In this document: positions 17,303 to 34,856 of the stretch, piece after piece
Layout of the letters: each line of letters starts with the position of its first letter
Numbering within the stretch: position 1 is the stretch's first letter
Assembly (NCBI RefSeq): GCF_024055715.1
Contig: NZ_JAMXMV010000023.1
Location: 1-64,000 of the forward strand
DNA: 64,000 bases
Reading direction: 5' to 3'
Origin: Actinoallomurus soli
GTDB lineage: Bacteria; Actinomycetota; Actinomycetes; Streptosporangiales; Streptosporangiaceae
Made by a program: the position numbers and the translations under genes
Notes under the pieces: model-generated
Told to the model about the DNA's origin: nothing
The model's input: the letters and a program-made list of their open reading frames with translations, nothing else
Databases searched by the model: none

Positions 17303-17343
17303 GGAATCCTCCTTGATCGCGGGGGCGTATGCTGCGTGGCGCG

Positions 17344-18273: not shown

Positions 18274-18403
18274 CCGTCGCTCCTCACACTGAGTCGTTGA
18301 AAGCATGACCATGAGAGCATGACGTGAAAGCACTGTCAAATGGCTCTGCTGTATTGGATGGTGTACAGTGGCGGTGCTTCAGAAAGCTGACGAGGAAGTT
18401 CCG
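18274..18403. promoter_or_regulatory. Divergent promoter region of the modification system and exonuclease
   Basis: This 130-bp gap separates the two divergent starts and is relatively A+T-rich around 18300-18370 (ATGAGAGCATGACGTG, CTGCTGTATTGG). It is the only obvious place for the promoter of the four-gene defence operon. No palindrome is strong enough to name. The HTH at the N-terminus of the first gene product could bind here. Confidence 0.4.
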
Positions 18404-20500
18404 ATGGCATCGCAGAGCGAGCAGTTGACCGCCGCCGAGATCTCTCGGCTCGCCGGTGTGACACGGGCGACCGTGAGCAACTGGCGCCGGCGCCACGCCG
18501 ACTTTCCGCAGCCCAGTGGGGGGACGGAGGCCAGCCCCAGCTACGACCGGCGGCAGGTCGAGGTGTGGCTCGACGCCCGGGGCCGCCTGCCCACGCGTTC
18601 GTCAAAAGACGACTTGCGAACCCACCTGCGCGGACGTGTGCCGCGCGAGGCCGAGGCCGTAGCCCTGTTCACGGCGCACGTCGCCGGGCTGGGTGACAAG
18701 AAACGCGCCGGGATCGCGACGCTGGACGACGAGGAGCTGCTCGCGCTGCATGCCGAAGCGGTGTCATCCGACTCTGGTACCGACGAATTGAGCCCTGCGG
18801 GCATCTCCGCGGCGCTTCTGCGATCGGCGGCGAACGTGATTCGCCAGGAAGGCCCTCTCGCCGTCTTCGACGTGCTCGAGGAACATGGCGAAGCGCCGAT
18901 CGGCATCCGCGGGACCCATCCGACGCCGGAGGCGCTCGCCGACCTGATGGCCGGGTTGGCAACGTCCGGAGGCCCGCGTGTCCACAGCGTTCTCGACCCG
19001 GCCTGCGGAGGTGGACGCCTCCTCGCCGCGACGGCGGCTGCCCTCAAGCCAGGCGCACGGATACACGGCCAGGAATACCGTCTCGTCACTGCGGCTCAGG
19101 CCAGGGCCCGGCTGGCCGAAGGGCCGGCTAAAGCCTCTGTGGATGTCAGGTCTGGGGACAGCCTGCGCGACGACGCCTTTCCCGGCCTTCGGGTGGACGC
19201 CGTGGTGTGCAACCCGCCGTACGGCGACCGCGAGTGGGGGCATGACGAACTGGCACTCGACACGCGCTGGGCGTACGGCGTGCCACCGCGCTCGGAGCCG
19301 GAACTCGCCTGGGTCCAGCACGCCCTGGCGCACCTTACCGAGGGCGGCCACGCCGTGCTGCTGCTTCCACCGGCGACCGCGTCACGATCCTCCGGCCGCC
19401 GCATCCGGGCTGAGCTGCTTCGGCAGGGAGCGCTCTGCGCAGTCATCGCCCTCCCGCCGGGCCTCGCGGTGCCCCACCACATCGGGCTTCACCTGTGGAT
19501 ACTCCGGCGCCCCGAAGCGAGCCGCCCCGGCCGGGATCTGGTCCTCCTGATGGACGCCTCCAACGAGCACGTCTCGACGGACCAGCCGGCCGCCCAAGGC
19601 GAGACACCGGACAAGAACAGGCTCCACGAGACGATCCTCAGCACGTGGAAGGCGTTCACCGCGCCGACCGAGTTCACCGAGATACCCGGTACCGCCCGGG
19701 CGGTACCGGCGATCGACCTCCTGGACGAGCTCGTCGATCTCTCGCCGGCACGACACGTCCGCACGGCACCAGTGATCAGCCCGGACGCGGCCCTGCGCAA
19801 CGTGACCGAGCTCGCCGAGCGCCTCAAAGCGGACGTGGCCGCTCTGGCGGCGGCGAGCGAGATCGGACCACTGACCTCGGCCGGGGAGACCAGCCGCAGC
19901 TGGCGCAGCGCCACGGTCGCCGACCTGGCCCGCGGCGGCGCGCTCGCCGTCCATAAGGGAGTGCGGTCCCTCTCAGCCGGTACCGCGCCTACCGACCTTG
20001 CGAATCGTCCCATCCTCCGGGCGCGCGACCTGATCGACGGGATCCGCGCCAGCGGCGACGCACGCGAGTTGCACCTGGCCGACCCGTTCGTCATCGAGGC
20101 GGGGGACGTCCTGCTCACCCAGAACGTCGGTCCGCAGGGCGTCGCGACCCGCGTGGCGGGTGAGGACGATGCCGGATGCCTGCTCGGCAACGGCGTGATC
20201 TTGCTCCGGCCGGATCCCAGACGTCTCGATCCGTGGTTCCTCGCCGGGTTCGTGAGCGCACCCGACAACGTCAGCCAGGCGACGACCGGCTCATCCACAT
20301 TCCAACTCGTGGCGTCCCGGCTGCGTATCCCGCTGCTCCCGCTTGATGGGCAAACCGCTTACGGCCACGTTTTCCGGAAGATTCACAAACTTCGGACCAG
20401 CGCGCGGAACGCCGCGGCGTGCGCGGATGAGACAGCGGACCTCGTGGCCACGACCCTCAGCAGCGGCGCGCTGCTTCCCCATGGAGCCGAGTTGCCATGA
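18404..20500 (+). CDS. HTH - N6-adenine DNA methyltransferase - HsdS-like specificity fusion
   Basis: A 698-aa protein from ATG 18404 (GAGGAAG 6 nt upstream); a GTG at 18368 is in frame but has no ribosome site. Residues about 7-40 form a MerR/resolvase-type HTH (LTAAEISRLAGVTRATVSNW). Residues about 130-400 form a type I-like N6-methylase with SAM motif DPACGGG starting at residue 198 and catalytic NPPY at 270. Residues about 500-698 resemble one HsdS target-recognition unit: LRARDLIDG, GDVLLTQNVGPQG and SSTFQLVASRLRIPLLPL, followed by a helical spacer. It combines M and S functions in one chain with its own DNA-binding head. It is the first gene of the defence operon; the kinase-helicase gene follows after 132 bp. 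Confidence 0.85.
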   Translation: MASQSEQLTAAEISRLAGVTRATVSNWRRRHADFPQPSGGTEASPSYDRRQVEVWLDARGRLPTRSSKDDLRTHLRGRVPREAEAVALFTAHVAGLGDKKRAGIATLDDEELLALHAEAVSSDSGTDELSPAGISAALLRSAANVIRQEGPLAVFDVLEEHGEAPIGIRGTHPTPEALADLMAGLATSGGPRVHSVLDPACGGGRLLAATAAALKPGARIHGQEYRLVTAAQARARLAEGPAKASVDVRSGDSLRDDAFPGLRVDAVVCNPPYGDREWGHDELALDTRWAYGVPPRSEPELAWVQHALAHLTEGGHAVLLLPPATASRSSGRRIRAELLRQGALCAVIALPPGLAVPHHIGLHLWILRRPEASRPGRDLVLLMDASNEHVSTDQPAAQGETPDKNRLHETILSTWKAFTAPTEFTEIPGTARAVPAIDLLDELVDLSPARHVRTAPVISPDAALRNVTELAERLKADVAALAAASEIGPLTSAGETSRSWRSATVADLARGGALAVHKGVRSLSAGTAPTDLANRPILRARDLIDGIRASGDARELHLADPFVIEAGDVLLTQNVGPQGVATRVAGEDDAGCLLGNGVILLRPDPRRLDPWFLAGFVSAPDNVSQATTGSSTFQLVASRLRIPLLPLDGQTAYGHVFRKIHKLRTSARNAAACADETADLVATTLSSGALLPHGAELP

Positions 20501-20638
20501 GGACCGAGGGTTCGTCGGTATGCGGGGCTCGACGATCAGCTCAAGAAGTGGTGTGCGCGCGTTAATGGCCTGTGGTGGCCAACCGATATCAGAGGCCCCG
20601 CGTCTCCGAATAGACGGGCGGGAAGATGAGGTGTGGCT

Positions 20639-23600
20639 GTGACTGTGGATAGCATCGCGAACCGGTTCCGTGTGACAGGCCCTCTCGGTAAGGGCAACAT
20701 GGGCGAGGTCCACCGCGCCGTTGACCTCCAGGCGGACGGTGACGACCAGGACCGCGAGGTCGCTGTGAAGGTGATCCTGCGTGGCCGCACGGGTGCACTG
20801 ATCGACTCGCGAGCCGATTCGAAGGCCGTTCAGCGGTTCGAGCGCGAAATCCGCATCATGCAGCGCCTCAACGAGCACCCGAATCTTCCGCGCATTATCG
20901 CCGGTGGCCTCGACGAGGGCGACGGCCTGCCGTTCATCGCCATGGAGCTCCTCAAAGGCCACACCTTGCGCGTACTGACAGGTGAGCATGCCCAGCTTCC
21001 GGTGGCCTGGGTGGCCGCCCTCGGCGCACAGATCGCGGACGGTTTGTCGGCCGCGCACCGGGCGGGGATCGTGCACCGTGATCTCAAGCCCGCGAACGTG
21101 ATGCTGCTTCCCGGGGGGCAGGTCAAGGTCCTCGATTTCGGCATGGGCCGGATCATCGACGATGCCGAGGCCGGCAGGGTGACGAGCACCGGGGTTACGG
21201 TCGGCACCGCTCGGTATATGGCCCCTGAGCAGTTCCTCAACGCGGCGGTGACTCAGGCCGCCGATCTTTACGCGCTCGGCTGCATGCTGTACGAGCTGCT
21301 GACAGGTGCCCCGCCGTTCGTGAGCGAGAACGCGCTCGAACTGGGGCAGAAGCACAGGACGGAGGAGCCGGCTCCGCTGCGGCTGCTGCGTTCGGACGTC
21401 CCTGAGGACATGGCCCGGCTGGTGGAGCGTCTCCTCAACAAGCAGCCGGAGGACCGGCCGGCCGATGCGGTGGCGGTCCGCGAGGCGCTTCTTCCCTTCG
21501 CCAAGGGCGAGTCGGTGGTCCAGGACTGGGAGTCTTATGACCCGGTCCGCTATCTCGCGTCGACTGATGAGGCGCCCGTGCCCGAACCGGCTCCGGTGGT
21601 GGAGAAGCCGCGCGTGGCGGGTTCGGTGATGGACGTGTTCGGGCTGCATCGGCAGCTCATCAAGGACTACCGGGAGTTCACCGAGGGCGGGACGATCATC
21701 CGCGACGACCGCATCGCCGCGTTCGTCGAGTCCGATCTCGACGCCAAGTCCCAGTGGCCGGACCCGTGGGTGTCGCTCAATCCGTTCTTCGCGTCGGGTG
21801 GCACCGTCTCGGAGCTGAGCGGCAAGCTCCTCCACGAGGAGTGCGCTCGCATCTTCCAGGCGGACAAGACCCGAAAGGGCACGAAATGCGACGGGCGCCC
21901 GCTCACCCTGCACCGCCACCAGCTTGAGGCGATTGAGGCCGCCAAGCGCAAGCAGTCCTATGTCCTGACGACCGGCACCGGCTCCGGCAAGTCCCTGTCC
22001 TACATCGTGCCCATCGTCGACCAAGTGCTGCGCGAGCGCGAGACGACGTCGGAGAAACGCGTCCGGGCGATCATCGTCTACCCGATGAACGCTCTGGTCA
22101 ACAGCCAGGTCAATGAGCTGAAGAAGTACCTGCGGGACGGCTATGGCAAGGGTAACGAGCCTGTCACCTTCGCCCGCTACACCGGGCAGGAGGACGATGA
22201 GCGCCGTAAGGAGATTCGCGACAATCCGCCGGACATCCTGCTGACCAACTACGTGATGCTCGAGCTGATGCTCACCCGCCCAAAGGATCGCAGTTCGCTG
22301 ATCCGGATGGCGAAGGGCCTGGAGTTCCTTGTCTTCGACGAGTTGCACACCTACCGGGGACGCCAGGGCGCGGACGTCGCGCTACTCATTCGTCGGGTGC
22401 GCGAGGCGTGCCAGGCGGAGCACCTGCAGTGCATCGGCACGTCGGCGACAATGTCGAGCGAGGGCACTTTCGATGACCAGAGGAAGGCGGTCGCTCGCGT
22501 GGCGACCACCCTCTTCGGGGTCGAGGTCGACACGGACAACGTCATCGGCGAGACGCTGGTCCGTGCGACCGAGGAGGCGCCGGAGACGGTCCCGGCTGAG
22601 CGGTTGCGGGCGCCAGCCGCCCCGCGCGCGTACGACGACCTGGTTAGGGACCCGCTGGCCCGCTGGATCGAGACGCGGTTCGGTCTCGCGAAGGACCCGA
22701 CGGGACGTCTCGTCCGCCAGAAGCCCTCGAAGATCGAGGAAGCCGCCGCCGATCTCGCGCACAAGTCCGGAGTTCCTGAGGATGTATGCGCTGAGGCGAT
22801 CCGCCGCACGCTGGAGGCCGGTTCGGAGGCCCGGCACGCGGTGACCGAGCGCCCGCTGTTCGCATTCCGGCTGCACCAGTTCCTGTCCAAAGGCGACACC
22901 GTATACGTCACCCTAGAGGACCCGGCGATCCGGCAGCTCACCCGCGACTACCAGCTCATCCAACCCGGTTCGGACGGCAAGATCCTGCTGCCATTGGCGT
23001 TCTGTCGCGAGTGCGGCCAGGAGTACCTGACCGTGTGGCGTAGCGACAAGGACGGCATGGTCCGCTACGAGCCGCGCCGTGACACTGCGGCCTCGGGCGG
23101 CCGTGAGGGCGACGGCTACCTGTACGTCGATTCGGGCCGGCCGTGGCCGCGTACCACCGAGGAGGCGATCGACGGCCGTCGCCTGCCGGAGTCGTGGCTG
23201 GAGGTCGACGACACTGGGCAGGAGGTCGTACGCGCCAACTACCGGTCGAAGCTTCCCATCCCGGTCCGCGTCGATCCCTATGGTGCTGAGGGCCAAGGGG
23301 AGCTGGAGGCCGCGTTCATTCCGGCGCCGTTCCGGTTCTGCCTGCACTGTGGAGTGAGCTACGAGCAGGTCCGCGGCAAGGATTTCGCCAAGCTGGCAAC
23401 GCTCGACCAGGAGGGACGCTCGTCGGCGACATCGCTAGTGTCCTCGTCGATCATCCGTTTCCTGCGGGCGGTGCCGGAGAATGCGCTGCTTCCCGAGGCA
23501 CGCAAGCTGCTCACGTTCGTCGACAACCGGCAGGACGCCTCGCTGCAGGCCGGCCACTTCAACGACTTCGTGCAGATCACCCAGCTTCGTGGGGCGCTGT

Positions 23601-26600
23601 ACCGGGCGGCGGTGGAGGCAGGTGACGAAGGCATCAGCCACGAGGATCTGGCGTCCAGGGTCGTCGGCGCCCTCGGCCTGGACGTCGCCGACTACACCGG
23701 CTCCTCGGACCTGCCCCCGTCAATGGCCCGCAACGCGGCTCGGACACTTCGAGACGTCGTCGCCTTCCGTCTCTATCTCGACCTGGAGCGCGGCTGGCGC
23801 GTCACCATGCCCAACCTGGAGCAGACGGGCCTGCTGCGGATCGACTACGAGGATCTCGACTGGGTGGCCAGCAAGGAAGACCGCTGGGAGAAGACCCATC
23901 GGGTGTTGCGCGACGCCGCGCCGGGCAGCCGTGCAGAAATTATGCGTGCGCTACTGGACGAAATGCGCCGTTCCCTCGCCATCGATGTGCAGTATTTCCG
24001 GGACGACTTCGACAGTCTGCGTCGTGCCAGCGAGGAGCGGCTCGTCGACCCGTGGGTCCTGTCGAAGAGCGACGAGCCCAAGGTCGGCACGGCCTACCCG
24101 CAGAAGGCCCGCCCCGGCCTCGACCGTTCGGGCCTGTTCCTGTCCGGGCTCAACAAGTTCGGCAAGTACCTGCGGCGCGTGCATTTCAACGACCTGTCGG
24201 TCGACGACGCCCAGCTGCTCATCGAGCAGCTGCTCCAGGTCCTGACCAAGGCGAACCTGGTCAAGGAGGTCTCGGTGACGCCCGGGTGGACCAGGCGCGG
24301 CCGCCGCCCCACCGGTCAGGCGATCACCGGCTATCGCGTCTCTGCGGCATGCCTGGTGTGGCGCGCCGGTACAGGCGAGATGGGCGCCCACGACCCTCTC
24401 ACTCGCACCTACGCCAGCGGCGATGGTCCCCGTGTCAACGTCTTCTTCCGGGACCTGTACCGCAACACCGCCGCCGAACTCGGCGGCCTCATCGCCCGTG
24501 AACACACCGCCCAGGTCGACCCGGAGGAGCGCCGCAAGCGCGAGGAAGCGTTCAGCGAGGCAAAGCTGAAGCTGCTGTACTGCTCACCCACGATGGAGCT
24601 GGGTGTGGACATCCGCGACCTCAACACGGTGATGATGCGCAACGTGCCGCCGACACCCGCGAATTACGCCCAGCGCAGCGGACGCGCAGGACGGTCCGGG
24701 CAGCCGGCGCTCGTCACCACCTACTGCGCGACCGGCAACAGTCATGACCAGTACTACTTCCGCCGTTCGGCGCGGATGGTGGCCGGCGCGGTCGCGCCGC
24801 CGCGCCTCGACCTGGCGAACGAGGATCTCGTCCGGTCACACATCCAGGCGATCTGGCTCGCCGAGACGGGCCTGGAACTGCACAACAACATCCCCGCGAT
24901 CATCGACATCGCCTACGACGAGGACTCCCGCCGACCTGACCCGCCCCTCCCCCTGCACGACACTGTCGTTCAGACGATCCATAGCGAGGCCGCACAGAAG
25001 CGTGCCGTGAGGGCCGCGAAGCAGGTGCTCGGCGGGCTCCTGGCCGACTTCGCAGCCACCGTCTGGTGGGACGACAACTGGATCGAGGAAACGGTCCGCA
25101 CCGCTCCCGAGCGTTTCGACCGGGCCTTCGACCGCTGGCGGCAACTGTTCAAGGCGGCGCTGGTGGATCAAGCGGAACAGAACCGCCGCGTCCTGGACAC
25201 CACCCTCTCCGACCGCGACAACAAGATCGCCGTCGGCCGCCGTCGGGAAGCGGAAACCCAGCTTGACCTGCTGAAGAATCAGTCGGCGGAAAGCCGATCG
25301 GTCCTGTCGGACTTCAGCCCGCACCGCTACCTGGCGAGCGAGGGTTTCCTGCCCGGCTACTCATTCCCACGGCTCCCGCTGGCCGCCTACATCAACATGC
25401 AGGACCGCCGTTTCCGTGACGGCGACTACCTGCAGCGCCCCCGGTTCCTGGCAATCCGTGAGTTCGGGCCAGGCGCGCTGATCTACCACGAGGGCGCTCG
25501 CTACCAGGTGACCCGCATCCAGCTCCCGCCGGGCGGGACGGGCGATGTGGTCACGTCCGAGGCCCGCCGCTGCGCGAGCTGCGGCTACCACCACGACTCG
25601 ACCGACCGCGCGGACCTCTGCCAGATGTGCAAGGAGCCGCTGCCCGAGGCCAAGTACGGGCTGCTGCAGATGCACACCGTCTACACCAAGGCCCGCGCGC
25701 GGATCTCCTCCGACGAGGAGGAACGCCGCCGGGCGGGTTTCCGGCTGGTGACGTCCTACCGGTTCAACGACCATGGCGAACGCTCGGGCCGCCAGGATGC
25801 CCTGGTCACCGACGACGACGGGCACATCGCCACTCTGGCCTTCGGCGACTCGGCGACGGTCCGGATCACCAACCTGGGCCGGCTGCGCGCCAAGGAAGGT
25901 GAGCCGGACGGTTTCTGGCTCGACCCCGCGACCGGCGAGTGGATGACCGAGAAGGCCGCGTCGGATGCGTCCGGCGACTCCAGCGAGATGCCGGTCGTGG
26001 ACGCGAGCGGCAACGAGAAGCGGCGTAAGAAGCGTGTCATCCCGTACGTGGAGGACCGCCGCAACATCCTGGTCGCCCAGCTGGCCGAGCCGCTGGAAGA
26101 GCCGGTCGCGCTGTCGCTGATGTATGCGCTGGAGCGCGGGATCGAGGCGGCGTTCGAGCTGGAGGATTCCGAGCTGTCGAGCGAGCTGCTGCCGCCCGAC
26201 GAGGGGCCCCGCGACCGTATGCTGTTCACCGAGGCCGCCGAGGGCGGCGCCGGCGTGCTGCGGCTGATGCAGTCGACGTCCGGCGCGCTGGCGAAGGCCG
26301 CGAAGGCGGCCCTGGACATCTGCCACTTCGACGAGCGTGGCAACGACCTCGGCGGCCCGCACCCGGACCGGCCATGCGCCCGCGGCTGCTACGACTGCCT
26401 GCTCACCTACGGCAACCAGCTCGACCACGCCTTGATCGACCGGCACGCCATCAAGGACATCCTGCTGCGCCTGGCCCACGCGAAGACCGTCGCGACCGGA
26501 CGCGGCGAGTCCCGAACCGAGCAGCTCGCGCGCCTGTCCGACCAGTCCGAGAGTCCGCTCGAACGCCGGTTCGTCGCCTGGCTGAAGGAACGCGGCCTGC

Positions 26601-26860
26601 GGATGCCCGATGAGGCGCAGACCTACGTTCCCGACGCGCAGGCCCGCCCCGACTTCGTGTACCGGTTGCCGGGAGTGCCAGTCGCGGTGTTCGTGGACGG
26701 CCCCGTTCACGAACACGACAACATCAAGGAGCGCGACCGCCAGGCGGAACAGCGGCTGGATCAGCAGGGCTGGGACGTGGTCCGCTTCCCCTACGACGCC
26801 GACTGGGACGCCATCGTCGCCGAGACACCGAGCTACTTCGGCGCTTCCTCCACCGCCTGA
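20639..26860 (+). CDS. Ser/Thr kinase - DEAD helicase - DUF1998 - Vsr-like nuclease polyprotein
   Basis: About 2073 aa; GTGs at 20633, 20639 and 20645 are all possible starts after GATGAGG. Residue numbers count from 20633. A Hanks-type kinase occupies about 10-285, with GKGNMGEV near 19, VAVKV, HRDLKPAN from 148, DFG from 168 and APEQ; all catalytic residues are present. A linker follows, then a superfamily 2 helicase with Walker A TTGTGSGKS from 446, DELH at 569-572, GTSATM, and motif VI QRSGRAGRSGQ from 1347. Cys clusters CRECG/CLHCG and CASCG/CQMC look zinc-binding. A DUF1998 domain ends in CARGCYDCLLTYGNQ (Cys 1915, 1919, 1922), as in DrmB and MrfA-type proteins. The last 100 residues resemble Vsr/DUF559 nucleases (D2007 in RPDF, D2022 in FVDG, then HEH). 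It combines DrmA- and DrmB-like parts with a kinase and a nuclease. Confidence 0.88.
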   Translation: MTVDSIANRFRVTGPLGKGNMGEVHRAVDLQADGDDQDREVAVKVILRGRTGALIDSRADSKAVQRFEREIRIMQRLNEHPNLPRIIAGGLDEGDGLPFIAMELLKGHTLRVLTGEHAQLPVAWVAALGAQIADGLSAAHRAGIVHRDLKPANVMLLPGGQVKVLDFGMGRIIDDAEAGRVTSTGVTVGTARYMAPEQFLNAAVTQAADLYALGCMLYELLTGAPPFVSENALELGQKHRTEEPAPLRLLRSDVPEDMARLVERLLNKQPEDRPADAVAVREALLPFAKGESVVQDWESYDPVRYLASTDEAPVPEPAPVVEKPRVAGSVMDVFGLHRQLIKDYREFTEGGTIIRDDRIAAFVESDLDAKSQWPDPWVSLNPFFASGGTVSELSGKLLHEECARIFQADKTRKGTKCDGRPLTLHRHQLEAIEAAKRKQSYVLTTGTGSGKSLSYIVPIVDQVLRERETTSEKRVRAIIVYPMNALVNSQVNELKKYLRDGYGKGNEPVTFARYTGQEDDERRKEIRDNPPDILLTNYVMLELMLTRPKDRSSLIRMAKGLEFLVFDELHTYRGRQGADVALLIRRVREACQAEHLQCIGTSATMSSEGTFDDQRKAVARVATTLFGVEVDTDNVIGETLVRATEEAPETVPAERLRAPAAPRAYDDLVRDPLARWIETRFGLAKDPTGRLVRQKPSKIEEAAADLAHKSGVPEDVCAEAIRRTLEAGSEARHAVTERPLFAFRLHQFLSKGDTVYVTLEDPAIRQLTRDYQLIQPGSDGKILLPLAFCRECGQEYLTVWRSDKDGMVRYEPRRDTAASGGREGDGYLYVDSGRPWPRTTEEAIDGRRLPESWLEVDDTGQEVVRANYRSKLPIPVRVDPYGAEGQGELEAAFIPAPFRFCLHCGVSYEQVRGKDFAKLATLDQEGRSSATSLVSSSIIRFLRAVPENALLPEARKLLTFVDNRQDASLQAGHFNDFVQITQLRGALYRAAVEAGDEGISHEDLASRVVGALGLDVADYTGSSDLPPSMARNAARTLRDVVAFRLYLDLERGWRVTMPNLEQTGLLRIDYEDLDWVASKEDRWEKTHRVLRDAAPGSRAEIMRALLDEMRRSLAIDVQYFRDDFDSLRRASEERLVDPWVLSKSDEPKVGTAYPQKARPGLDRSGLFLSGLNKFGKYLRRVHFNDLSVDDAQLLIEQLLQVLTKANLVKEVSVTPGWTRRGRRPTGQAITGYRVSAACLVWRAGTGEMGAHDPLTRTYASGDGPRVNVFFRDLYRNTAAELGGLIAREHTAQVDPEERRKREEAFSEAKLKLLYCSPTMELGVDIRDLNTVMMRNVPPTPANYAQRSGRAGRSGQPALVTTYCATGNSHDQYYFRRSARMVAGAVAPPRLDLANEDLVRSHIQAIWLAETGLELHNNIPAIIDIAYDEDSRRPDPPLPLHDTVVQTIHSEAAQKRAVRAAKQVLGGLLADFAATVWWDDNWIEETVRTAPERFDRAFDRWRQLFKAALVDQAEQNRRVLDTTLSDRDNKIAVGRRREAETQLDLLKNQSAESRSVLSDFSPHRYLASEGFLPGYSFPRLPLAAYINMQDRRFRDGDYLQRPRFLAIREFGPGALIYHEGARYQVTRIQLPPGGTGDVVTSEARRCASCGYHHDSTDRADLCQMCKEPLPEAKYGLLQMHTVYTKARARISSDEEERRRAGFRLVTSYRFNDHGERSGRQDALVTDDDGHIATLAFGDSATVRITNLGRLRAKEGEPDGFWLDPATGEWMTEKAASDASGDSSEMPVVDASGNEKRRKKRVIPYVEDRRNILVAQLAEPLEEPVALSLMYALERGIEAAFELEDSELSSELLPPDEGPRDRMLFTEAAEGGAGVLRLMQSTSGALAKAAKAALDICHFDERGNDLGGPHPDRPCARGCYDCLLTYGNQLDHALIDRHAIKDILLRLAHAKTVATGRGESRTEQLARLSDQSESPLERRFVAWLKERGLRMPDEAQTYVPDAQARPDFVYRLPGVPVAVFVDGPVHEHDNIKERDRQAEQRLDQQGWDVVRFPYDADWDAIVAETPSYFGASSTA

Positions 26861-26902
26861 TACGCATACGAAATCCGACGAGCACCACGACGCGAGGACC
26901 CC

Positions 26903-29809
26903 TTGACGACAACGGCCTACACCCCCGGTTCCCTGGTCTCGGTCCGCGACCGCGAATGGGTCGTGCTGCCCGAGAGCGAGCCGGACATGCTGGTGCTGCG
27001 CCCACTCGGCGGCGCCGATGACGACATCGCGGCGGTATTCCCAGCGTTCGAAGACGTGCGGGAAACCAAATTCGAGGCGCCGTCGCCACAGGACCTCGGC
27101 GACGCGCGCGCGGCGGGCCTGCTGAGGACTGCGCTGCGCATCGGGTTCCGGTCGGGCGCGGGACCGTTCCGATCGTTGGCTGGGATCGCGGTGGAGCCGC
27201 GTGCGTACCAGCTCGTCCCGCTGATGATGGCGTTGCGGCAGAAGACGGTCCGGATGCTGATCTCCGATGACGTCGGCATCGGCAAGACCGTCGAGGCCGG
27301 TCTGATCGCGAGCGAACTGCTGGCGCAGGGGGAGGCGAAGGGCCTCGCGGTATTGTGCTCGCCGGCACTCGCCGAGCAGTGGCAGGACGAGCTGCGCGCC
27401 AAGTTCGGCATCGACGCCGAGCTCGTCCTGTCCTCCACGGTCACCCGGCTCGAACGGGACCTGGACATGGGCCAGTCCCTGTTCGACAAGCACCCCAACG
27501 TGATCGTGTCGACGGACTTCATCAAGTCGTACCGGCACCGCGACGACTTCGTCCGCCGCTGCCCGGACCTGGTCATCGTGGACGAAGCCCACACCTGCGT
27601 CGCCGCCGACGACAGCACCTCGCAGCAGAGCCAGCGCCGTTACGAGTTGCTCCAGCGCATCGCCGAGGACAAGGACCGGCACTTGCTGCTGGTGACCGCG
27701 ACGCCGCACAGCGGCAAGGAGAGCTCGTTCCGCAACCTCCTCGCCCTGCTGAAGCCCGAGTTCGGCGACCTGGACATGAACAGCGGTCCCGACCGTGCTC
27801 GCCTCGCCCTGCATTTCGTCCAGCGTCGCCGTGCCGACATCCGCAAGTACCTCGACGAGGAGACCGAGTTCCCCGCCGACCGGTTCTTCAAGGACGAGAC
27901 CTACAAGCTGTCCCCTGCATACCGGTCGCTGCTGGAGGACGCGATCGGCTACGCGAGCGAGCGGGTCACCGTCGCGGGAGAGCAGGGCAGGCGGGAGGCC
28001 CGGATCGCCTGGTGGTCGGCCATCGCGCTGCTGCGGTCGCTGGTGTCGTCGCCGCGCGCCGCCGCGCAGACCCTGCGGACCCGTTCAGCCGCCGCGTCCG
28101 CCGCCACAGCGGAGGAGGCCGACGAGTTGGGCGCGCCGCTGACCCGCGACTCCGCGGACAACGATGCGCTGGAGGGCCTGGACGTCGCGCCCGGTGCCGA
28201 GACAGACCCGGAGATCGGTGTGGCGGGGGCGAGACTCGCCGCGCTGGCCGACCGTGCCGCCGAACTCGAGGGCCCGGACCGAGATCTGAAACTGAAGGCC
28301 TTGATCAAGCACCTGAAGGCGCTGCTCAAGGAGGGCTACCACCCGATCGTCTTCTGCCGCTACATCCCGACCGCCGAGTACGTCCGCGACCACCTCGACG
28401 GCAAGCTCGGTAAGAAGACCGTCGTCCGGGCCGTGACGGGCACCCTGTCCCCACAGCAGCGTCTCCAGCGCATCGAAGACCTCGCCGACGAAACGGCCGA
28501 CGACCCGGACACCCGCCGCGTTCTCGTCGCCACCGACTGCCTGTCTGAAGGCGTCAACCTACAACATCATTTCGACGCGGTTGTTCATTACGACCTGGCG
28601 TGGAACCCGACCCGCCACGACCAGCGCGAAGGACGCGTCGACCGCTACGGCCAGAGGCGCGACGAAGTCAAAGTCATCACTATCTACGGCAGCGACAACG
28701 GCATCGACGGCAAGGTCCTGGAAGTCCTCATTCGCAAGCACCGCCGGATCCGCGATGACCTCGGCATCTCCGTCTCCGTGCCCGATGAGGCGTCCTCGGG
28801 GGTGACGGACGCGATCGTCGAGTGGCTGCTTATGCGCAGCCAGCGCGGCGAGCAGGAGGCCCTGTTCGGCGCCGAGGACATCTCGTCCGTCAACCAGAAG
28901 GCCGCCGAGCTGGAACAGGAGTGGAACTCCACCGTCGAGCGTGAGAAGGCGTCCCGCTCCCGGTTCGCGCACAACGCTATCCGCCTCGAGGAGGTCAAGC
29001 GTGAGGTCGACGCCACCCGGGACGCGCTCGGCGACGCTGGCGAGATCCGCGACTTCGTCCGCCACGCCCTCTCCGCCCTCGACGGCGTCCTGTACGAGGG
29101 CGGGGAGGCCCTCGGCGACTTCGGCGCGGACCTGAGCGGCAGCCCCGTCGGGCTCCGCGATGTGCTGGCGCCGATGCTGGGCGGCGGGATCATCGAGAAC
29201 GGCAAGCAGGTCCCGTTCCGCAACGTGTCGGCGGTTTCGCGCGGCGAGGCGGCGCTCGTCCGTACGGATCCGGTCGTCGGCGCGCTCGCCGGCCACCTCC
29301 TCAACTCCGCCCTCGATTCTCAGACCGACGGCCCCCGCCCGGCCCGCCGCTGCGGTGTCATCCGCACGAGAGCGGTTACCACTCGGACGACGCTGCTGCT
29401 CGTTCGCTACCGGTTCCACCTGACGCTTCCGTCGCGCGTGGGCGAACGGCAGCTCGTCGCCGAGGACGCCCGGCTCCTCGCTTTCCAGGGTTTCCCCGCC
29501 GACGCGACGTGGCTGTCCGCCGAGGAAGCCGCGCGCCTGCTACACGCCACCGCCGATGAGAACACCGACCCCACCTTCGGAGAACGGACGATGAAACGGG
29601 TCCTGGACGCTCTGCCCGACGCCACGGAATATCTCAGTGAGTACGGCGACCGGCTCGCGACCGAACTCCGCGACTCGCACCGCCGCGTCCGCAGCGCCGC
29701 TGGCGAAATCATCCGAGGCGTGGACGTGAAGGCGCAGAAGCCCGCCGACATCCTCGGCGCTTACGTGTACCTGCCGGTGTCCGGCACCGTCTCCGGAGGA
29801 GCCGCCTGA
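26903..29809 (+). CDS. SNF2-family helicase, DrmD-like
   Basis: A 968-aa protein starting at TTG 26903 with GAGGA upstream. The SNF2/RapA-type ATPase motifs are intact: DVGIGKT (Lys128), DEAH from 227, and LLVTATPHSGKE. In the second lobe come VATDCLSEGVNLQHH and WNPTRHDQREGRVDRYGQ. The C-terminal third is a long helical region. This architecture matches the SNF2 helicase (DrmD) of class 1 DISARM. It follows the kinase-helicase gene by 42 bp and ends in a TGATG 1-nt overlap with the methylase gene, so the three are one operon. Together with that methylase it forms the recognisable DISARM-like half of the system. Confidence 0.87.
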   Translation: MTTTAYTPGSLVSVRDREWVVLPESEPDMLVLRPLGGADDDIAAVFPAFEDVRETKFEAPSPQDLGDARAAGLLRTALRIGFRSGAGPFRSLAGIAVEPRAYQLVPLMMALRQKTVRMLISDDVGIGKTVEAGLIASELLAQGEAKGLAVLCSPALAEQWQDELRAKFGIDAELVLSSTVTRLERDLDMGQSLFDKHPNVIVSTDFIKSYRHRDDFVRRCPDLVIVDEAHTCVAADDSTSQQSQRRYELLQRIAEDKDRHLLLVTATPHSGKESSFRNLLALLKPEFGDLDMNSGPDRARLALHFVQRRRADIRKYLDEETEFPADRFFKDETYKLSPAYRSLLEDAIGYASERVTVAGEQGRREARIAWWSAIALLRSLVSSPRAAAQTLRTRSAAASAATAEEADELGAPLTRDSADNDALEGLDVAPGAETDPEIGVAGARLAALADRAAELEGPDRDLKLKALIKHLKALLKEGYHPIVFCRYIPTAEYVRDHLDGKLGKKTVVRAVTGTLSPQQRLQRIEDLADETADDPDTRRVLVATDCLSEGVNLQHHFDAVVHYDLAWNPTRHDQREGRVDRYGQRRDEVKVITIYGSDNGIDGKVLEVLIRKHRRIRDDLGISVSVPDEASSGVTDAIVEWLLMRSQRGEQEALFGAEDISSVNQKAAELEQEWNSTVEREKASRSRFAHNAIRLEEVKREVDATRDALGDAGEIRDFVRHALSALDGVLYEGGEALGDFGADLSGSPVGLRDVLAPMLGGGIIENGKQVPFRNVSAVSRGEAALVRTDPVVGALAGHLLNSALDSQTDGPRPARRCGVIRTRAVTTRTTLLLVRYRFHLTLPSRVGERQLVAEDARLLAFQGFPADATWLSAEEAARLLHATADENTDPTFGERTMKRVLDALPDATEYLSEYGDRLATELRDSHRRVRSAAGEIIRGVDVKAQKPADILGAYVYLPVSGTVSGGAA

Positions 29810-32800
29810 TGTCCGCCACCGCCCGCACACAGATCTTTTCGGCCGTCCACACCATCGGTGGCCTCCTCCCTGCAGACATGCTCGTACGCATTTCCGAGGG
29901 GAAGGACGTCCAGGGCTCCAGGCCCGCCGACTATGACATCTTCGGCGCCCGTTCCGTCCGCGACGAGGCCGAACGCCACTGGGACTACCTCAAGTCCGTG
30001 TGGAAGGAACTGCGCGACAAGCTGCCCGTCGCGCCGGAGGCAGAGACCCCCGCCGACCCCACCGGCCTCGCGATCCGGCAGTGGCTGGAGCCGCTGTTCG
30101 CCGAACTGAGCTTCGGCCGCCTCACGGCCCTCGGCGCGTCCGGCATCGAGGCAAACGGCGATGGTAAGACGTTCGCGATTAGCCACCTGTGGACGCACGT
30201 CCCGATCCACCTGGCCGCCTGGAACACCCGACTCGACTCCCGCCCCGGCGGCCCCGGGACCGTCCCGCCGCAGTCGCTCGTCCAGGAGTGCCTGAACCGC
30301 ACCGAAGCCCACCTGTGGGCAATGCTGACGAACGGACGCCAGCTCAGGTTGCTGCGCGACTCCAGCGCCCTCGCCACCGCCGCCTACGTCGAATTCGACC
30401 TTGAGGCCATCTTCGATGGGGAGCTGTTCAGCGAGTTTGTGCTGCTGTACCGCCTCCTGCACGCCTCCCGCTTCGCTGTCGACGACGGCGCGCCGCCTTC
30501 TTCATGCTGGCTTGAAAAGTGGCGGACAGACGCGATCGCGTCTGGCGCCCGAGCCCTGGACCAACTCCGCAAGGGTGTCCAGGACGCCATCACCACGCTC
30601 GGGACGGGCTTCCTGAAGCACCCCGCCAACACCGAGCTTCGAGAGAACATCGACACGCAGGCCATGCACAAGGCGCTGCTGCGTCTCGTCTACCGGCTGC
30701 TGTTCCTATTCGTCGCCGAAGACCGCGACGTCCTCCACTCGCCCGAGGCCTCCGACCAGACGCGCGAGCGGTACTCGAAGTACTTCTCGTCAGACCGGCT
30801 GCGCGGACACGCCCGCCGACGACGCGGCACCGCCCACGGTGACCTCTATCAGGCCCTAAAGATCGTGCTAAACGCGCTCGGCAACGAGAACGGACGCCCC
30901 GAACTCGGCCTGCCCGGTCTCGGCGGCCTGTTCTCCGACACCGACGCCGATGCTCCGCTGCGCGGCCTGTCCCTCTCGAACGAGTATCTGCTCACCGCCG
31001 TCCGCCACCTCTCCCAGGTCCGCGATCCAGCGACTCACCGCTGGCGGACCGTCGACTACAAACACCTGGACGCTGAGGAACTCGGTTCCATCTACGAATC
31101 GCTGCTGGAGCTCGATCCCAGGCACAGCGCCGTCGACCGCACCTTCGAGCTGGTCGAACTCGCCGGCAACTCCCGTAAGACGACCGGTTCGTACTACACG
31201 CCGTCGTCCCTGATCGACTGCCTGCTGGACGCGACGCTCGATCCAGTCATCGACGATGCCGAGAAGCGCGGCGAGGAAAAGGCAGCGGAGGCCGGTGAGC
31301 CGGACTCGGCGGAAGCGATCGTTTCGGAGCTGCTCTCCCTAACCGTCTGCGACCCGGCCTGCGGCTCCGGCCACTTCCTCGTGGCCGCCGCCCGCCGCAT
31401 CGCCAAACGCGTCGCCGCAGTCCGCGAGCGTAATCCCGAACCAACGTCGGACTCAGTGCGCCGCGCGTTGCACGAGGTCATCGCTCGCTGCGTGTATGGC
31501 GTGGACCTTAACCCAATGGCCGTGGAACTGGCCAAGGTCTCGTTGTGGCTCGAGGCCATGGAACCCGGCAAACCACTTGGCTTCCTCGACGCCCACATCA
31601 AGCACGGCAACGCGCTGATCGGAGCCACTCCGGCCCTGCTGAAGGGCGGCATTCCGGACGAGGCCTTCATCGCCACGGAGGGCGACGACAAGAAGCAGGC
31701 CAAGATCCTTGAGAAGCTCAACACCGACGAGCGCAGCGGGCAGCACACCCTGTTCGACGGCGACGAGGACGCGGTCAAAGTCACCAACACCGCGTTTGCG
31801 GACGGCCTGCGCCGCATTACCACTGCCCCCTCCGACAGTCTCCGCGCCGTCAAGCGCCAAGCCGAGGCGTACGAGGCATGGGAGAAGTCCGCCGAGTACA
31901 TCCGTGCCCTGCACGTCGCGGACGCCTGGTGCGCTGCGTTCATGTGGCTTAAGACCAAGGATTCGCCTCGAGCCGTCACCCAGAAGATCTTTCTCGCTCT
32001 CGAGGACCCGGACGCCGAGGGCATCCCGGCCGCCACGCACGACGAGATCGTCCGGCTTCGCGACCAGTACCGCTTCTTCCACTGGCATCTGGAGTTCCCC
32101 GAGGTCTTCACCGTCCCGGACTCCGGCCAGACGGCCGCGGTCAACAGCGCCACCGGCTGGGCGGGCGGCTTCTCCTGCGTCCTCGGCAACCCGCCCTGGG
32201 ACAGCGTCGAACTCAAGGAGCAGGAGTTCTTCGAGCAGCGTTTGCCTTCCATCGCAAGGGTCTCCAAAGCTGACGCCCGCAAGAAGCTGATCGCCGCTCT
32301 CCAGGATTCCCCGGATACGCTGCCAATTTATACTCAATACACTTCAGCGAAGCGATTCATCCACGCAGAGAGCCACTTCCTGCGCAGATCTGGCCGCGTT
32401 CCACTCACCGGCCAGGGCAACATCAACAAATACGCGGTGTTCGCGGAAACCGACCGCGTCCTCACCAGCCCACGCGGTCGCGTTGGGATCATCGTCCCCA
32501 CAGGTATCGCCACCGATGCGAGGACCCAATTCTTCTTCAAGGACCTGGTACAGCAAGGCTTGATCGCCGCCCTGTACGACTTCGAGAACCGCTCCGGCCT
32601 CTTCCCTGCCGTGGACTCCCGACAGAAGTTCTGCGTCCTCTCTCTCACTGGGCCAGGTCAGCGAGGAGAAGCCGCAAAGTTTGGCTTCTTCCTCCACGAC
32701 CCCACCGAGTTGGACGACGCGGGCAAGTCGTTCACCCTCAGCCCGGAGGAAATTACTCTTCTCAACCCAAACACTGGCACTTGCCCCATCTTCCGCTCCC

Positions 32801-33867
32801 GCCGCGATGCCGAAATAACTCTCGCAATATACGAGCGAATGCCAGTCCTAGTGAAAGAACGCTCCCCAGAAGGGAATGCTTGGTGCCTATCCTTCACGCA
32901 AGGACTCTTTAATATGTCACACGATGCGGGATTCTTTCATTCCGCCAATGAGCTGGAAGAGGAGGGCTGGAACCTAAGGGGAAATACTTTTTATTCCCCC
33001 TCTAAAGTCATGCTCCCACTCTACGAAGCAAAGATGGTCGACCTTTACAATCATCGGGCAGCGGACGTAGTCAAGAGCGCAACGGCCGCCAAAAGGACGA
33101 GCCAACCACGGTACTTGACTACAGCGGAATTGAATGATGCCCACAGGACACCCTTCCCCATGCACTGGGTGACAGAGACCGAAGTTACCAAGAAACTCTC
33201 CTCCGCACAGTGGACTAGAGAATGGCTCTATGGCTGGTGCGACGTAACAAGCGCCACAAACGAGCGCACAGCAGTGCCCGTCATAATTCCACGGTCGGCC
33301 GTAGGACACAAGATCCCCCTAATGTTCTCTCAAAGACCATCAGCCCTACTTGCCGGACTATATGCTGCACAATCATCGATGGCGTTCGATTACGTGAGTC
33401 GCCAAAAGGTTGGCGGCGTGAGCATGGCGAAATTTATCTGGCAACAACTGCCCGCACCAAGCCCGGACATGATCTCAACTCATACCCATTTCTTGAGGCG
33501 CCGCGTCCTGGAGCTTATATATACTGCGAGCGACATATCCGGGTTTGCGCGTGACCTTGGCGAAAAAGGCACTCCGTTCCAGTGGGATGAGGAGCGGCGC
33601 GCTGTCATCCGCGCGGAGCTGGACGCTTTTTTCTTCCACCTATACGGCATCAGCCGCGACGATGTTGACTACATCATGGATACGTTCCCGATCGTCAAGC
33701 GGAAAGACGAGGCCAAGTACGGGACCTACCGGACGAAGGATCTCGTGCTCGCTGAGTACGACCGGATGGCCGCCGCTGGCGTTGATCTCGATAAGCCGCT
33801 GGTGGACGGCGAGAACTACACGTCCACGCTCACCCCGCCACCGGGGAACGGGCCTCGGCACGGGTAA
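29809..33867 (+). CDS. Large Eco57I-type N6-adenine methyltransferase, DrmMI-like
   Basis: A 1352-aa protein, in the size class of DISARM DrmMI and BREX PglX. SYYTPSSLIDCLL near 464, the SAM motif CDPACGSGHFL around Asp515, GVDLNPMAVELAKVSLWLE near 564, and the catalytic NPPW from 794 identify an Eco57I-like N6-adenine methylase. No nuclease motif is seen in the N-terminal 450 residues. A target-recognition region lies at about 960-1250. The end DTFPIVKRKDEAKYGTYRTK is typical of type IIG/PglX-like proteins. DNA for the recognition region is far more A+T-rich (near 50% G+C) than the rest of the gene, suggesting exchange of specificity. It is the last gene of the operon. Confidence 0.87.
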   Translation: MSATARTQIFSAVHTIGGLLPADMLVRISEGKDVQGSRPADYDIFGARSVRDEAERHWDYLKSVWKELRDKLPVAPEAETPADPTGLAIRQWLEPLFAELSFGRLTALGASGIEANGDGKTFAISHLWTHVPIHLAAWNTRLDSRPGGPGTVPPQSLVQECLNRTEAHLWAMLTNGRQLRLLRDSSALATAAYVEFDLEAIFDGELFSEFVLLYRLLHASRFAVDDGAPPSSCWLEKWRTDAIASGARALDQLRKGVQDAITTLGTGFLKHPANTELRENIDTQAMHKALLRLVYRLLFLFVAEDRDVLHSPEASDQTRERYSKYFSSDRLRGHARRRRGTAHGDLYQALKIVLNALGNENGRPELGLPGLGGLFSDTDADAPLRGLSLSNEYLLTAVRHLSQVRDPATHRWRTVDYKHLDAEELGSIYESLLELDPRHSAVDRTFELVELAGNSRKTTGSYYTPSSLIDCLLDATLDPVIDDAEKRGEEKAAEAGEPDSAEAIVSELLSLTVCDPACGSGHFLVAAARRIAKRVAAVRERNPEPTSDSVRRALHEVIARCVYGVDLNPMAVELAKVSLWLEAMEPGKPLGFLDAHIKHGNALIGATPALLKGGIPDEAFIATEGDDKKQAKILEKLNTDERSGQHTLFDGDEDAVKVTNTAFADGLRRITTAPSDSLRAVKRQAEAYEAWEKSAEYIRALHVADAWCAAFMWLKTKDSPRAVTQKIFLALEDPDAEGIPAATHDEIVRLRDQYRFFHWHLEFPEVFTVPDSGQTAAVNSATGWAGGFSCVLGNPPWDSVELKEQEFFEQRLPSIARVSKADARKKLIAALQDSPDTLPIYTQYTSAKRFIHAESHFLRRSGRVPLTGQGNINKYAVFAETDRVLTSPRGRVGIIVPTGIATDARTQFFFKDLVQQGLIAALYDFENRSGLFPAVDSRQKFCVLSLTGPGQRGEAAKFGFFLHDPTELDDAGKSFTLSPEEITLLNPNTGTCPIFRSRRDAEITLAIYERMPVLVKERSPEGNAWCLSFTQGLFNMSHDAGFFHSANELEEEGWNLRGNTFYSPSKVMLPLYEAKMVDLYNHRAADVVKSATAAKRTSQPRYLTTAELNDAHRTPFPMHWVTETEVTKKLSSAQWTREWLYGWCDVTSATNERTAVPVIIPRSAVGHKIPLMFSQRPSALLAGLYAAQSSMAFDYVSRQKVGGVSMAKFIWQQLPAPSPDMISTHTHFLRRRVLELIYTASDISGFARDLGEKGTPFQWDEERRAVIRAELDAFFFHLYGISRDDVDYIMDTFPIVKRKDEAKYGTYRTKDLVLAEYDRMAAAGVDLDKPLVDGENYTSTLTPPPGNGPRHG

Positions 33868-34570
33868 CGGGGCAGCCAGTAGGTAGCGGAAGTGCGAACG
33901 GGAAGGACCGACCACCGCGACGCCGTCTCGCCAGTCCTTGAGGCGGCCTGGAGCGCTCTTCGACCATGTACAGCAGCCGGGCGGGGCCGGCCTTGTTGCA
34001 TGCGAGAGTGAGGTCGATGGCGCTGATGTGCTTGTCGTCGAGCCTGATGTGACGCCAGACGTGCCGCCGATTACCCGCACGCCGTTGAACCGGCCAGGGC
34101 CACCGATAAACACCCGCCGCCCTCAGCCAGGAGCGCACTGTTGCTGGTGTGCCACGACGCCCCGAGCCTGGCCGACGACGCGGTCGGCGGTGAGGTGGTC
34201 GATCACGATGCTCTCCAGCGCCTACCACAACCCCAGCGTTACAGCTTCGCCTTCAGCGGTGCGGCCTTCGCGGTGTTCTGCCGCCAGACCCGCCCGCATC
34301 CGCCGCACCGGTAGCGGCGTACCCGGACCAGCAGGGCCGTGGGCCGGTTCCCGAACGACTCGTGGGCGAGACGGCGCGCCACCGTGCCCCGCGGCGCCCC
34401 TCCGCGCCGCCCCTGCGGACCACGGATCGCGGTGGGGCTCGGCGACGCGGCACTCGACCATCGCCCGGCCCGGTTTCAGCCGCTGCCCGACCGCCTCCAA
34501 TCCGAGTTCCTCGAAGCGGCAGAATGCGGTCAGGTCAGGGGCATGCCGGTCGCTGCTGGCGGCAGGCGGA
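33850..34570 (-). pseudogene. ISL3-type transposase remnant
   Basis: Minus-strand pieces in different frames match an ISL3-family transposase in order. The N-terminal part contains FCRFEELGLEAVGQRLKPGR and AMVECRVAEPHRDPW. The zinc-finger/HTH part is broken. A central part reads HISAIDLTLACNKAGPARLL then YMVEERS. Frames change at least twice and the C-terminal catalytic part is missing, so it is inactive. It lies between the defence operon and tRNA-Lys, a usual position for debris at the edge of an island. Confidence 0.7.
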
Positions 34571-34783
34571 TTCAGGCACCACCTACACCCTCGATTGCGA
34601 TGAGCCCGCAGACGGCCCAACACCGCCACGTTGGATAGTTATGCAACAGGGCGCACGCCCCCGGATGGCTGCCCTGCACAAGATCGGAACAAACGAGCAC
34701 CCACGGAGCACCCACGGCCCCGAAACGATCACTACAAGATCCACCGGACCGGAGAAACCGCAGGTCGGCGGCCAGGTGAGTGG

Positions 34784-34856
34784 TAGGGCGCCTGGGACTC
34801 GAACCCAGAACCTATGGATTAAAAGTCCACAGCTCTGCCAATTGAGCTAACGCCCC
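34784..34856 (-). tRNA. tRNA-Lys (anticodon TTT)
   Basis: On the minus strand the gene begins GGGGCGT and the acceptor closes with GCGCCCT plus discriminator A (two G-U pairs). The D-arm TAGCTCAATTGG, anticodon loop CTTTTAA and T-arm GGTTCGAGTCC are normal. CCA is not fully encoded (the next bases are CCAC). Its 3' end faces the defence island at lower coordinates, the standard orientation for a tRNA used as an integration site. Confidence 0.95.

What the first reader, a model, noticed from the sequence alone, without database searches (positions are those of the whole stretch)
18404..33867. Kinase-fused DISARM-like modification system (candidate new defence system)
Seen: four co-directional genes with short gaps or a TGATG overlap encode (1) an HTH + N6-methylase + HsdS-like unit, (2) one 2073-2075-aa chain with an intact Hanks kinase, a DEAD-type helicase, zinc clusters, DUF1998 and a Vsr/DUF559-like nuclease end, (3) a DrmD-like SNF2 helicase, and (4) a DrmMI-like Eco57I methylase. 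Known: class 1 DISARM has separate drmD, drmMI, drmA, drmB (DUF1998) and drmC (PLD); BREX type 2 uses a kinase (PglW) with PglX and PglZ. Here DrmA/B-like parts are fused to a kinase and a nuclease, a second methylase is added, and neither PLD nor PglZ is present. Inference: a hybrid in which phosphorylation controls helicase/nuclease action against unmodified DNA.
Basis: partly seen in the sequence, partly recalled or inferred. Interest (0 to 1): 0.92.

Follow-up and report, generated by a model that had tools for sequence, protein, structure and literature searches.

The report
Kinase-fused ARMADA phage-defence operon
A soil actinomycete carries a large anti-phage DNA-restriction operon of a recently named kind (ARMADA type I) whose central DNA-unwinding, DNA-cutting enzyme has gained its own protein kinase, and the same kinase lineage and the methylase beside it also turn up together next to other DNA-restriction systems, which suggests a reusable phosphorylation switch for immunity.

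Summary
The four genes exist as described, at 18404-33867. The last three are not a new system. They are ARMADA type I, named in a September 2025 preprint (PMC12458937): a YprA/DruE-like helicase with a Vsr-like nuclease end, a BrxHII/RapA-like helicase, and a PglX/DrmMI-like methylase. Their order held in 93 of 94 loci with enough flank. What is new is the N-terminal Hanks kinase. It arose once, in actinomycetes, and is kept in 32 of 33 descendants sampled, with every catalytic residue invariant. The preprint's main text never uses the word kinase. Gene 1 (HTH + N6-methylase + HsdS-like) is an accessory: it lies upstream in 16 of 46 kinase-bearing loci and 0 of 48 kinase-less ones. Elsewhere, 24 of 33 homologues of gene 1 have a same-strand kinase downstream, 13 of them across a type I RM operon. 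Those kinases and the ARMADA kinase form one clade. Gene 4 has a swapped recognition block, as expected of the specificity subunit. Most likely this is a methylation-guided, non-abortive restriction system with a phosphorylation switch. ARMADA membership is well supported; the kinase's role is inferred. Verdict: new variant of a known kind.

The parts
18404..20500 (+). Gene 1 (M1): HTH + N6-adenine methylase + HsdS-like end, 698 aa; accessory methylase
   Evidence: N6_Mtase 170-452 E 1e-35; PADLOC MTase_I PDLC03037 580 bits, HTH like mad1, HsdS-like 533-676; DPACGGG at 198 and NPPY at 270
20633..26860 (+). Gene 2 (K-H2): kinase + YprA/DruE-like helicase + Zn domains + MZB/DUF1998 + Vsr-like nuclease, 2075 aa (ArmC-like)
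20672..21463 (+). Hanks-type Ser/Thr kinase domain, residues 14-277
   Evidence: Pfam Pkinase E 7e-42; VAVK K46, E72, HRD D150, N155, DFG D168, APE E199 identical in 32/32 relatives; activation-loop T184 in 32/32, T186 in 28/32 and Ser in 4
21914..22459 (+). RecA1/DEAD domain, Walker A GTGSGKS at 448, DELHT at 569
22505..23632 (+). Insert region typical of the ARMADA/Druantia lineage: helical part, then a cysteine-bearing beta domain (residues 625-1000)
   Evidence: AlphaFold2 pLDDT 83; profile matches the helicase chain 9wae 565-849, E 6e-4; Foldseek gave no significant hit
24485..24700 (+). RecA2 / Helicase_C, motif VI QRSGRAGR at 1347
26117..26401 (+). MrfA Zn-binding domain (MZB, DUF1998)
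   Evidence: Pfam PF09369 E 2e-8
26570..26797 (+). C-terminal Vsr/DUF559-type PD-(D/E)XK nuclease domain
   Evidence: AlphaFold2 pLDDT 90; weak Foldseek matches, many of them PD-(D/E)XK-type endonucleases
26903..29809 (+). Gene 3 (D3): BrxHII/DrmD/RapA-like SF2 helicase, 968 aa (ArmA-like)
   Evidence: PADLOC PDLC02853 1606 bits over full length (labelled DpdE), DrmD 294 bits; RapA in PDB E 5e-23; GIGKT at 125, DEAH at 227
29809..33867 (+). Gene 4 (M4): PglX/DrmMI-like N6-adenine methylase, 1352 aa (ArmB-like)
   Evidence: Eco57I E 4e-15; DrmMI 226 bits; DPACGSG at 515, NPPW at 794
32206..33558 (+). Variable, recognition-domain-like block of gene 4 (residues ~800-1250)
   Evidence: 26-58% identity per 100 residues to two near relatives against about 90% at both ends and in genes 2-3; G+C 56% against 67%

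Best explanation
This is an ARMADA type I anti-phage restriction system carrying a lineage-specific kinase. Gene 4 marks host DNA at a specific adenine motif. The gene 2 and gene 3 helicases load on and travel along unmarked incoming DNA, and the nuclease end of gene 2 cuts it, without killing the cell. The fused kinase is a switch in cis: it autophosphorylates and phosphorylates partners (the helicase-nuclease, gene 3 or gene 1) to license or restrain the machine, most plausibly in response to DNA engagement. Gene 1 is an accessory second methylase/DNA-binding unit that works with this kinase lineage in several different restriction systems. Shown here: gene content, conservation, single origin and retention of the kinase, intact catalytic motifs, recognition-block swapping, recurrent methylase-kinase linkage. 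Inferred from ARMADA type II, DISARM and Druantia work: methylation-guided DNA attack. Inferred only: what the kinase phosphorylates and the sign of its effect. Separate confidences: ARMADA type I membership about 0.92; kinase as regulator of the system about 0.6.
For: Core order H2-D3-M4 on one strand in 93 of 94 loci with enough flank (the 94th has an intervening gene), across many phyla. ARMADA type I is defined by these genes, this order and a Vsr-type C-terminus, and ARMADA type II protects E. coli without cell death, losing activity when Walker or NPPW motifs are mutated (PMC12458937); the corresponding motifs are intact here. Kinase fusion: one gain and one loss on a 103-row tree, clade support 99; K46, E72, D150, N155, D168 invariant in 32/32. 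M1 upstream in 16/46 kinase loci against 0/48 kinase-less (Fisher p 2e-6, not corrected for relatedness), with at least three separate co-directional recruitments on the M1 tree. M1 homologues elsewhere: 24/33 have a same-strand kinase downstream, about 1.5 expected. The ARMADA, type I RM and M1-pair kinases form one clade, 99/98, apart from 23 other kinases of this genome. Recognition-block swap in gene 4. Short-Argonaute defence genes lie next door.
Against: No experiment on type I ARMADA or on this kinase was found. Most ARMADA type I systems have no kinase, so it is not needed for the basic function. Three of five additional kinases that fall in the clade (Streptomyces) have no M1 nearby. 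Clustering of related sequences inflates the counts. The nuclease fold match is weak and the active site looks degraded in a few relatives. The BrxA-like insert could not be confirmed.
Confidence: 0.6

Rival explanations
1. The kinase is a backup, self-directed effector: when restriction fails it phosphorylates host proteins and stops growth, as proposed for the kinase modules of PglW and DndF and as known (from general knowledge) for Stk2-like abortive kinases.
For: PMC12839542 proposes suicidal backup roles for NERD-kinase parts of PglW/DndF; the kinase scores well against PADLOC PD-T4-6 models.
Against: PD-T4-6 models also hit every other kinase scanned, so they are not specific. ARMADA type II acts without abortive death (PMC12458937). 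The kinase is fused to the helicase, and its lineage sits with methylases and restriction operons.
Confidence: 0.2
2. The kinase and the HTH-bearing gene 1 form an expression control circuit (as CapK-CapS does): the kinase phosphorylates gene 1 to release repression or change modification, while the restriction core is unchanged.
For: Gene 1 has an N-terminal HTH; CapK is an ssDNA-activated kinase that phosphorylates a repressor of immune operons (PMC13373217); M1-kinase neighbourhood is recurrent.
Against: Gene 1 keeps intact methylase motifs and no homologue was detected upstream of 30 of 46 kinase-bearing loci; CapK is an anti-sigma-type kinase, not a Hanks kinase.
Confidence: 0.15
3. The kinase protects the system against phage-borne kinases or inhibitors (decoy or counter-counter-defence).
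For: Phages encode kinases that inactivate DNA-targeting defences (reviewed in PMC12904381).
Against: Every catalytic residue is conserved, which a decoy would not need.
Confidence: 0.05

Closest known systems
ARMADA type I (Bell et al. 2025 preprint, PMC12458937)
   Same: Same three core genes in the same order, same helicase architecture with DUF1998 and a Vsr-type C-terminus; abundant in Actinomycetota.
   Different: N-terminal Hanks kinase fused to the YprA helicase; accessory HTH-methylase-HsdS-like gene upstream. The word kinase does not occur in the preprint's main text; its supplement could not be read.
ARMADA type II (E. coli; L131 from plasmid NZ_CP080067)
   Same: YprA helicase, RapA-like helicase, PglX-like methylase.
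   Different: Type II has the RapA-like and methylase genes first and a fourth GajB-like helicase; only RecA1 of its YprA protein aligns well with gene 2.
DISARM class 1 (drmD, drmMI, drmA, drmB, drmC)
   Same: DrmD- and DrmMI-related genes, a DUF1998 helicase module.
   Different: One fused YprA protein instead of DrmA + DrmB, no PLD DrmC, nuclease fused at the C-terminus.
Druantia (DruE)
   Same: Gene 2 helicase is closest to DruE among PADLOC proteins and to DruE-like helicases among solved chains.
   Different: No DruH/DruM partners; [quoted passage not shown] Vsr-like nuclease in place of PLD.
BREX type 2 (Pgl)
   Same: Kinase plus PglX-like methylase plus helicase.
   Different: No PglZ found; kinase is PknB-like rather than PglW-like and is fused to a helicase.
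MADS
   Same: Methylase (MAD2), HTH (MAD1) and kinase (MAD6) similarity of gene 1 and the kinase domain.
   Different: Scores far below the NCBIfam cut-offs; the other MADS genes were not seen.

Membership tests
ARMADA type I | Operon of YprA-like helicase, then BrxHII/RapA-like helicase, then PglX-like methylase | tested here: met
ARMADA type I | YprA homologue with DUF1998 module fused in one chain and most similar to DruE | tested here: met
   MZB E 2e-8; DruE best by profile, large DEAD/DEAH helicases of the DruE kind best in PDB
ARMADA type I | C-terminal active Vsr-type nuclease | tested here: inconclusive
   DUF559 in 44/54 members, Vsr in 2, Vsr listed at non-significant E, weak Foldseek matches; PDF...VDG..H motif present in the window protein; activity untested
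ARMADA type I | BrxA-like helical insert after RecA1 and Zn-binding beta-barrel in RecA2 | tested here: inconclusive
   Helical then cysteine-bearing beta region predicted, profile match to 9wae 565-849, no Foldseek hit to BrxA
ARMADA type I | Anti-phage activity | not testable with these tools
   Only type II has been tested (PMC12458937)
ARMADA type II | Methylase pair first, YprA third, GajB-like ArmD fourth | tested here: not met
   Order differs; the scanned ORFs after gene 4 show no helicase domain
DISARM class 1 | Separate drmA and drmB plus PLD drmC | tested here: not met
   Single fused protein; no PLD among scanned window ORFs
BREX type 2 | PglZ and PglW | tested here: not met
   No PglZ among scanned ORFs; PglW model only 44 bits, cut-off 990
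Druantia | DruE with DruH or DruM/F/G partners | tested here: not met
   Neighbours are a RapA-like helicase and methylases
MADS | mad1-mad8 set | tested here: not met
   MAD2 22.5 of 720 bits, MAD6 144 of 460 bits
Active Hanks kinase | Catalytic K, E, HRD, N, DFG, APE present (activity itself untested) | tested here: met
   32/32 relatives

The most novel reading that the evidence does not exclude
A defence-dedicated lineage of PknB-like kinase together with an HTH-methylase-HsdS protein is a portable phosphorylation control module that plugs into different DNA-restriction machines of actinomycetes: type I RM (M1-HsdM-HsdS-HsdR-kinase), ARMADA type I (fused to the helicase), and stand-alone pairs. 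Phosphorylation would license restriction in step with the state of DNA modification. L182 (M1-kinase-RapA-like helicase-type IIG/PglX) shows a similar gene layout with a kinase from another branch.
Probability: 0.4. Interest if true: 0.8.

Novelty: new variant of a known kind. Interest (0 to 1): 0.62.

Why it matters
How methylation-based defences avoid attacking their own host is open for ARMADA, DISARM and Druantia. A kinase fused to the central helicase-nuclease, kept by selection with all catalytic residues and recurring beside other restriction operons, offers a direct handle: point mutants can test whether bacteria license DNA restriction by Ser/Thr phosphorylation. It also links a new defence class to the Ser/Thr kinases that are abundant and poorly assigned in actinomycetes.

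Tried and rejected
A tRNA-Lys insertion site: the tRNA lies 0.9 kb after gene 4 but no matching repeat was found in the window. PADLOC's label DpdE for gene 3: the model matches at full length, but no Dpd context was seen and the gene groups with ARMADA cassettes; I treat the label as a cluster name. A PglW or MAD6 origin of the kinase: rejected on scores. Recovery of a BrxA fold by structure search: no significant hit. Phage-borne copies of gene 3: none in the phage collection. The C. acnes 'possible DISARM' (PMC7365801) may be the same cassette but could not be checked. Published description of a kinase-YprA fusion or of a methylase-kinase module with type I RM: none found in the held library, which misses most subscription papers and supplements.
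Full report
Observation. The four co-directional ORFs exist at the stated coordinates with the stated lengths and overlap. Pfam, PADLOC and NCBIfam searches confirm the domains. In this one protein the nuclease end is weak (MTES_1575 E 3e-4, DUF559 E 1e-3), but 44 of 54 relatives match DUF559. The predicted structure is confident (pLDDT 90); its Foldseek matches are all weak (E 6e-3 at best) and many are PD-(D/E)XK-type endonucleases.

What the core is. Relatives of gene 2 were sought in 396 genomes of the phylum and in a public collection of 84,980 species. In 16 of 16 first loci genes 3 and 4 follow gene 2. Over all loci with enough flank the order and strand are kept in 93 of 94, and the 94th only has an intervening gene. 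Two loci without that much flank have other arrangements, as the preprint reports for some cyanobacteria (L100, L126). The cassette occurs in Actinomycetota, Chloroflexota, Acidobacteriota, Pseudomonadota, Planctomycetota, Cyanobacteriota and others and on plasmid MP1 of Deinococcus radiodurans, where the methylase is split into two ORFs. The same set was named ARMADA type I in a 2025 preprint (PMC12458937): a YprA-family helicase with a Vsr-type C-terminus, then a BrxHII/RapA-like helicase, then a PglX-like methylase. Gene 2 is nearest to Druantia DruE by profile, and its best match among solved structures is a 2108-residue DEAD/DEAH helicase (9tu7, E 2e-76) that I take to be DruE from its size and date. 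An E. coli ARMADA type II locus with the different gene order and a Druantia III-like locus served as outgroups.

What is new: the kinase. Most members begin directly at the helicase. On a tree of 103 helicase regions the fused kinase needs one gain and one loss; 32 of the 33 rows of a clade supported at 99 carry it, from Glycomyces, Streptomonospora, Micromonospora, Amycolatopsis, Actinomadura and Streptomyces. The exception, L053, has no kinase in its upstream reading frames. K46, E72, H148, R149, D150, N155, D168, F169, G170 and E199 are identical in all 32, as is the activation-loop T184; T186 is Thr in 28 and Ser in 4. In the host family all 18 loci fetched have the fusion. This pattern points to selection for kinase activity. 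The kinase is PknB-like; the PglW model gives only 44 bits. The preprint's main text does not contain the word kinase, nor was a kinase-helicase fusion of this sort found in the BREX survey of 2026; supplements could not be read.

Gene 1. A homologue of gene 1 lies upstream, co-directional or divergent, in 16 of 46 kinase-bearing loci and in 0 of 48 kinase-less loci (Fisher p 2e-6, not corrected for relatedness). On the M1 tree the co-directional ARMADA copies fall in at least three separate places among homologues from other systems, and the divergent copies form nearly one group, so gene 1 joined kinase-bearing ARMADA several times. It is an accessory, not a core part.

A wider link. Homologues of gene 1 were sought in 297 genomes of the class without regard to ARMADA. 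Of 33 loci taken in order of score, 24 have a kinase downstream, all 24 on the same strand; about 1.5 are expected from the density of kinases in this genome. Thirteen are M1-HsdM-HsdS-HsdR-kinase, nine are M1-kinase pairs, one is M1-kinase-RapA-like-type IIG/PglX (L182) and one is ARMADA. The window's own genome has one of the type I RM kind (L174) and one pair (L173), and their kinases are the two nearest paralogues of the ARMADA kinase among about 55. A kinase tree puts the ARMADA, RM and pair kinases in one clade (99/98) apart from 23 other kinases of the genome; the L182 kinase falls outside. As an outside check, 14 further kinases found by similarity alone were added: five fell in the clade, two of these with HsdM-HsdS-HsdR beside them and three, all from one genus-level group, without M1 or RM genes nearby; the nine outside had none. 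So the link is strong but not absolute.

Specificity. Genes 2 and 3 are 89-92% identical to two near relatives along their whole length. Gene 4 is about 90% identical at both ends but 26-58% per 100 residues between residues 800 and 1250, and that block has 56% G+C against 67% for the part before it. This is the mark of an exchanged target-recognition domain and points to gene 4 as the unit that sets the modified sequence.

Mechanism. Shown: composition, order, intact catalytic motifs, kinase origin and retention, recognition-block exchange. From work on relatives: ARMADA type II protects E. coli directly and without cell death, and needs the helicase Walker and NPPW motifs (PMC12458937); DISARM's DrmAB is activated by unmethylated DNA (PMC9142583); DruE loads on ssDNA-bearing DNA and cuts (PMC13192584). 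Inference: gene 4 marks self, genes 2 and 3 attack unmarked DNA, and the fused kinase sets when they do so. A precedent for an immune kinase that senses ssDNA is CapK (PMC13373217), though of another kinase family. The sign of the effect and the substrates are unknown.

Surroundings. A short Argonaute with its REase-APAZ partner (SPARDA-like) lies at 13556-16314, so this is a defence island. The block shared with two relatives runs from about 16805 to 33913 and includes a DnaQ-BRCT exonuclease and a DUF4352 gene upstream.

Limits. The 80 loci of the large scan are the best of at least 590 and lean towards the window, so the share with a kinase is not a prevalence; in the phylum sample only this genome and one other (G023) have the fusion. 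Gene calls in fetched loci are mechanical. No experiment on type I was found.

Noticed in passing
window 13556-16314 (-): Short prokaryotic Argonaute (PADLOC pAgo_I 561 bits) with an upstream DUF4365/REase-APAZ partner (470 bits): a SPARDA-like system in the same defence island.
   Followed up: partly
window 16826-18339 (-): DUF4352 protein and DnaQ-like exonuclease with BRCT, divergent from gene 1, conserved at DNA level with the operon in L047 and L193; may travel with it.
   Followed up: partly
L174, L179-L181, L183, L185, L186, L211-L213, L220, L223, L224: Type I RM operons preceded by an HTH-methylase-HsdS-like gene and followed on the same strand by a Hanks kinase.
   Followed up: partly
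L182 (3479-15255, -): M1-kinase-RapA-like helicase-type IIG/PglX operon without a YprA helicase found in the 20 kb; its kinase is from another branch.
   Followed up: no
L127 (D. radiodurans R1 plasmid MP1, record 157173-168669): Kinase-less ARMADA type I with the methylase annotated as two ORFs, in a model organism.
   Followed up: no
L049: Contig assigned to a Melainabacteria MAG carries a kinase-ARMADA locus 74% identical to gene 2 of the window; it groups with Actinocrispum, so the contig is probably misbinned.
   Followed up: no
L028 14220-17291 (+): SF1 helicase fused to a PLD-like domain and DUF5710, divergent from kinase-ARMADA in G023.
   Followed up: no
window 34781-34856 (-): tRNA-Lys just after the operon; no att-like repeat found within the window.
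   Followed up: yes
downstream of gene 4 in 14 kinase-ARMADA loci (e.g. L054, L066, L115): A recurrent HTH regulator-like gene, mostly convergent, in some loci next to a short ORF resembling an ATP-binding regulator; may be ordinary for actinomycetes.
   Followed up: no
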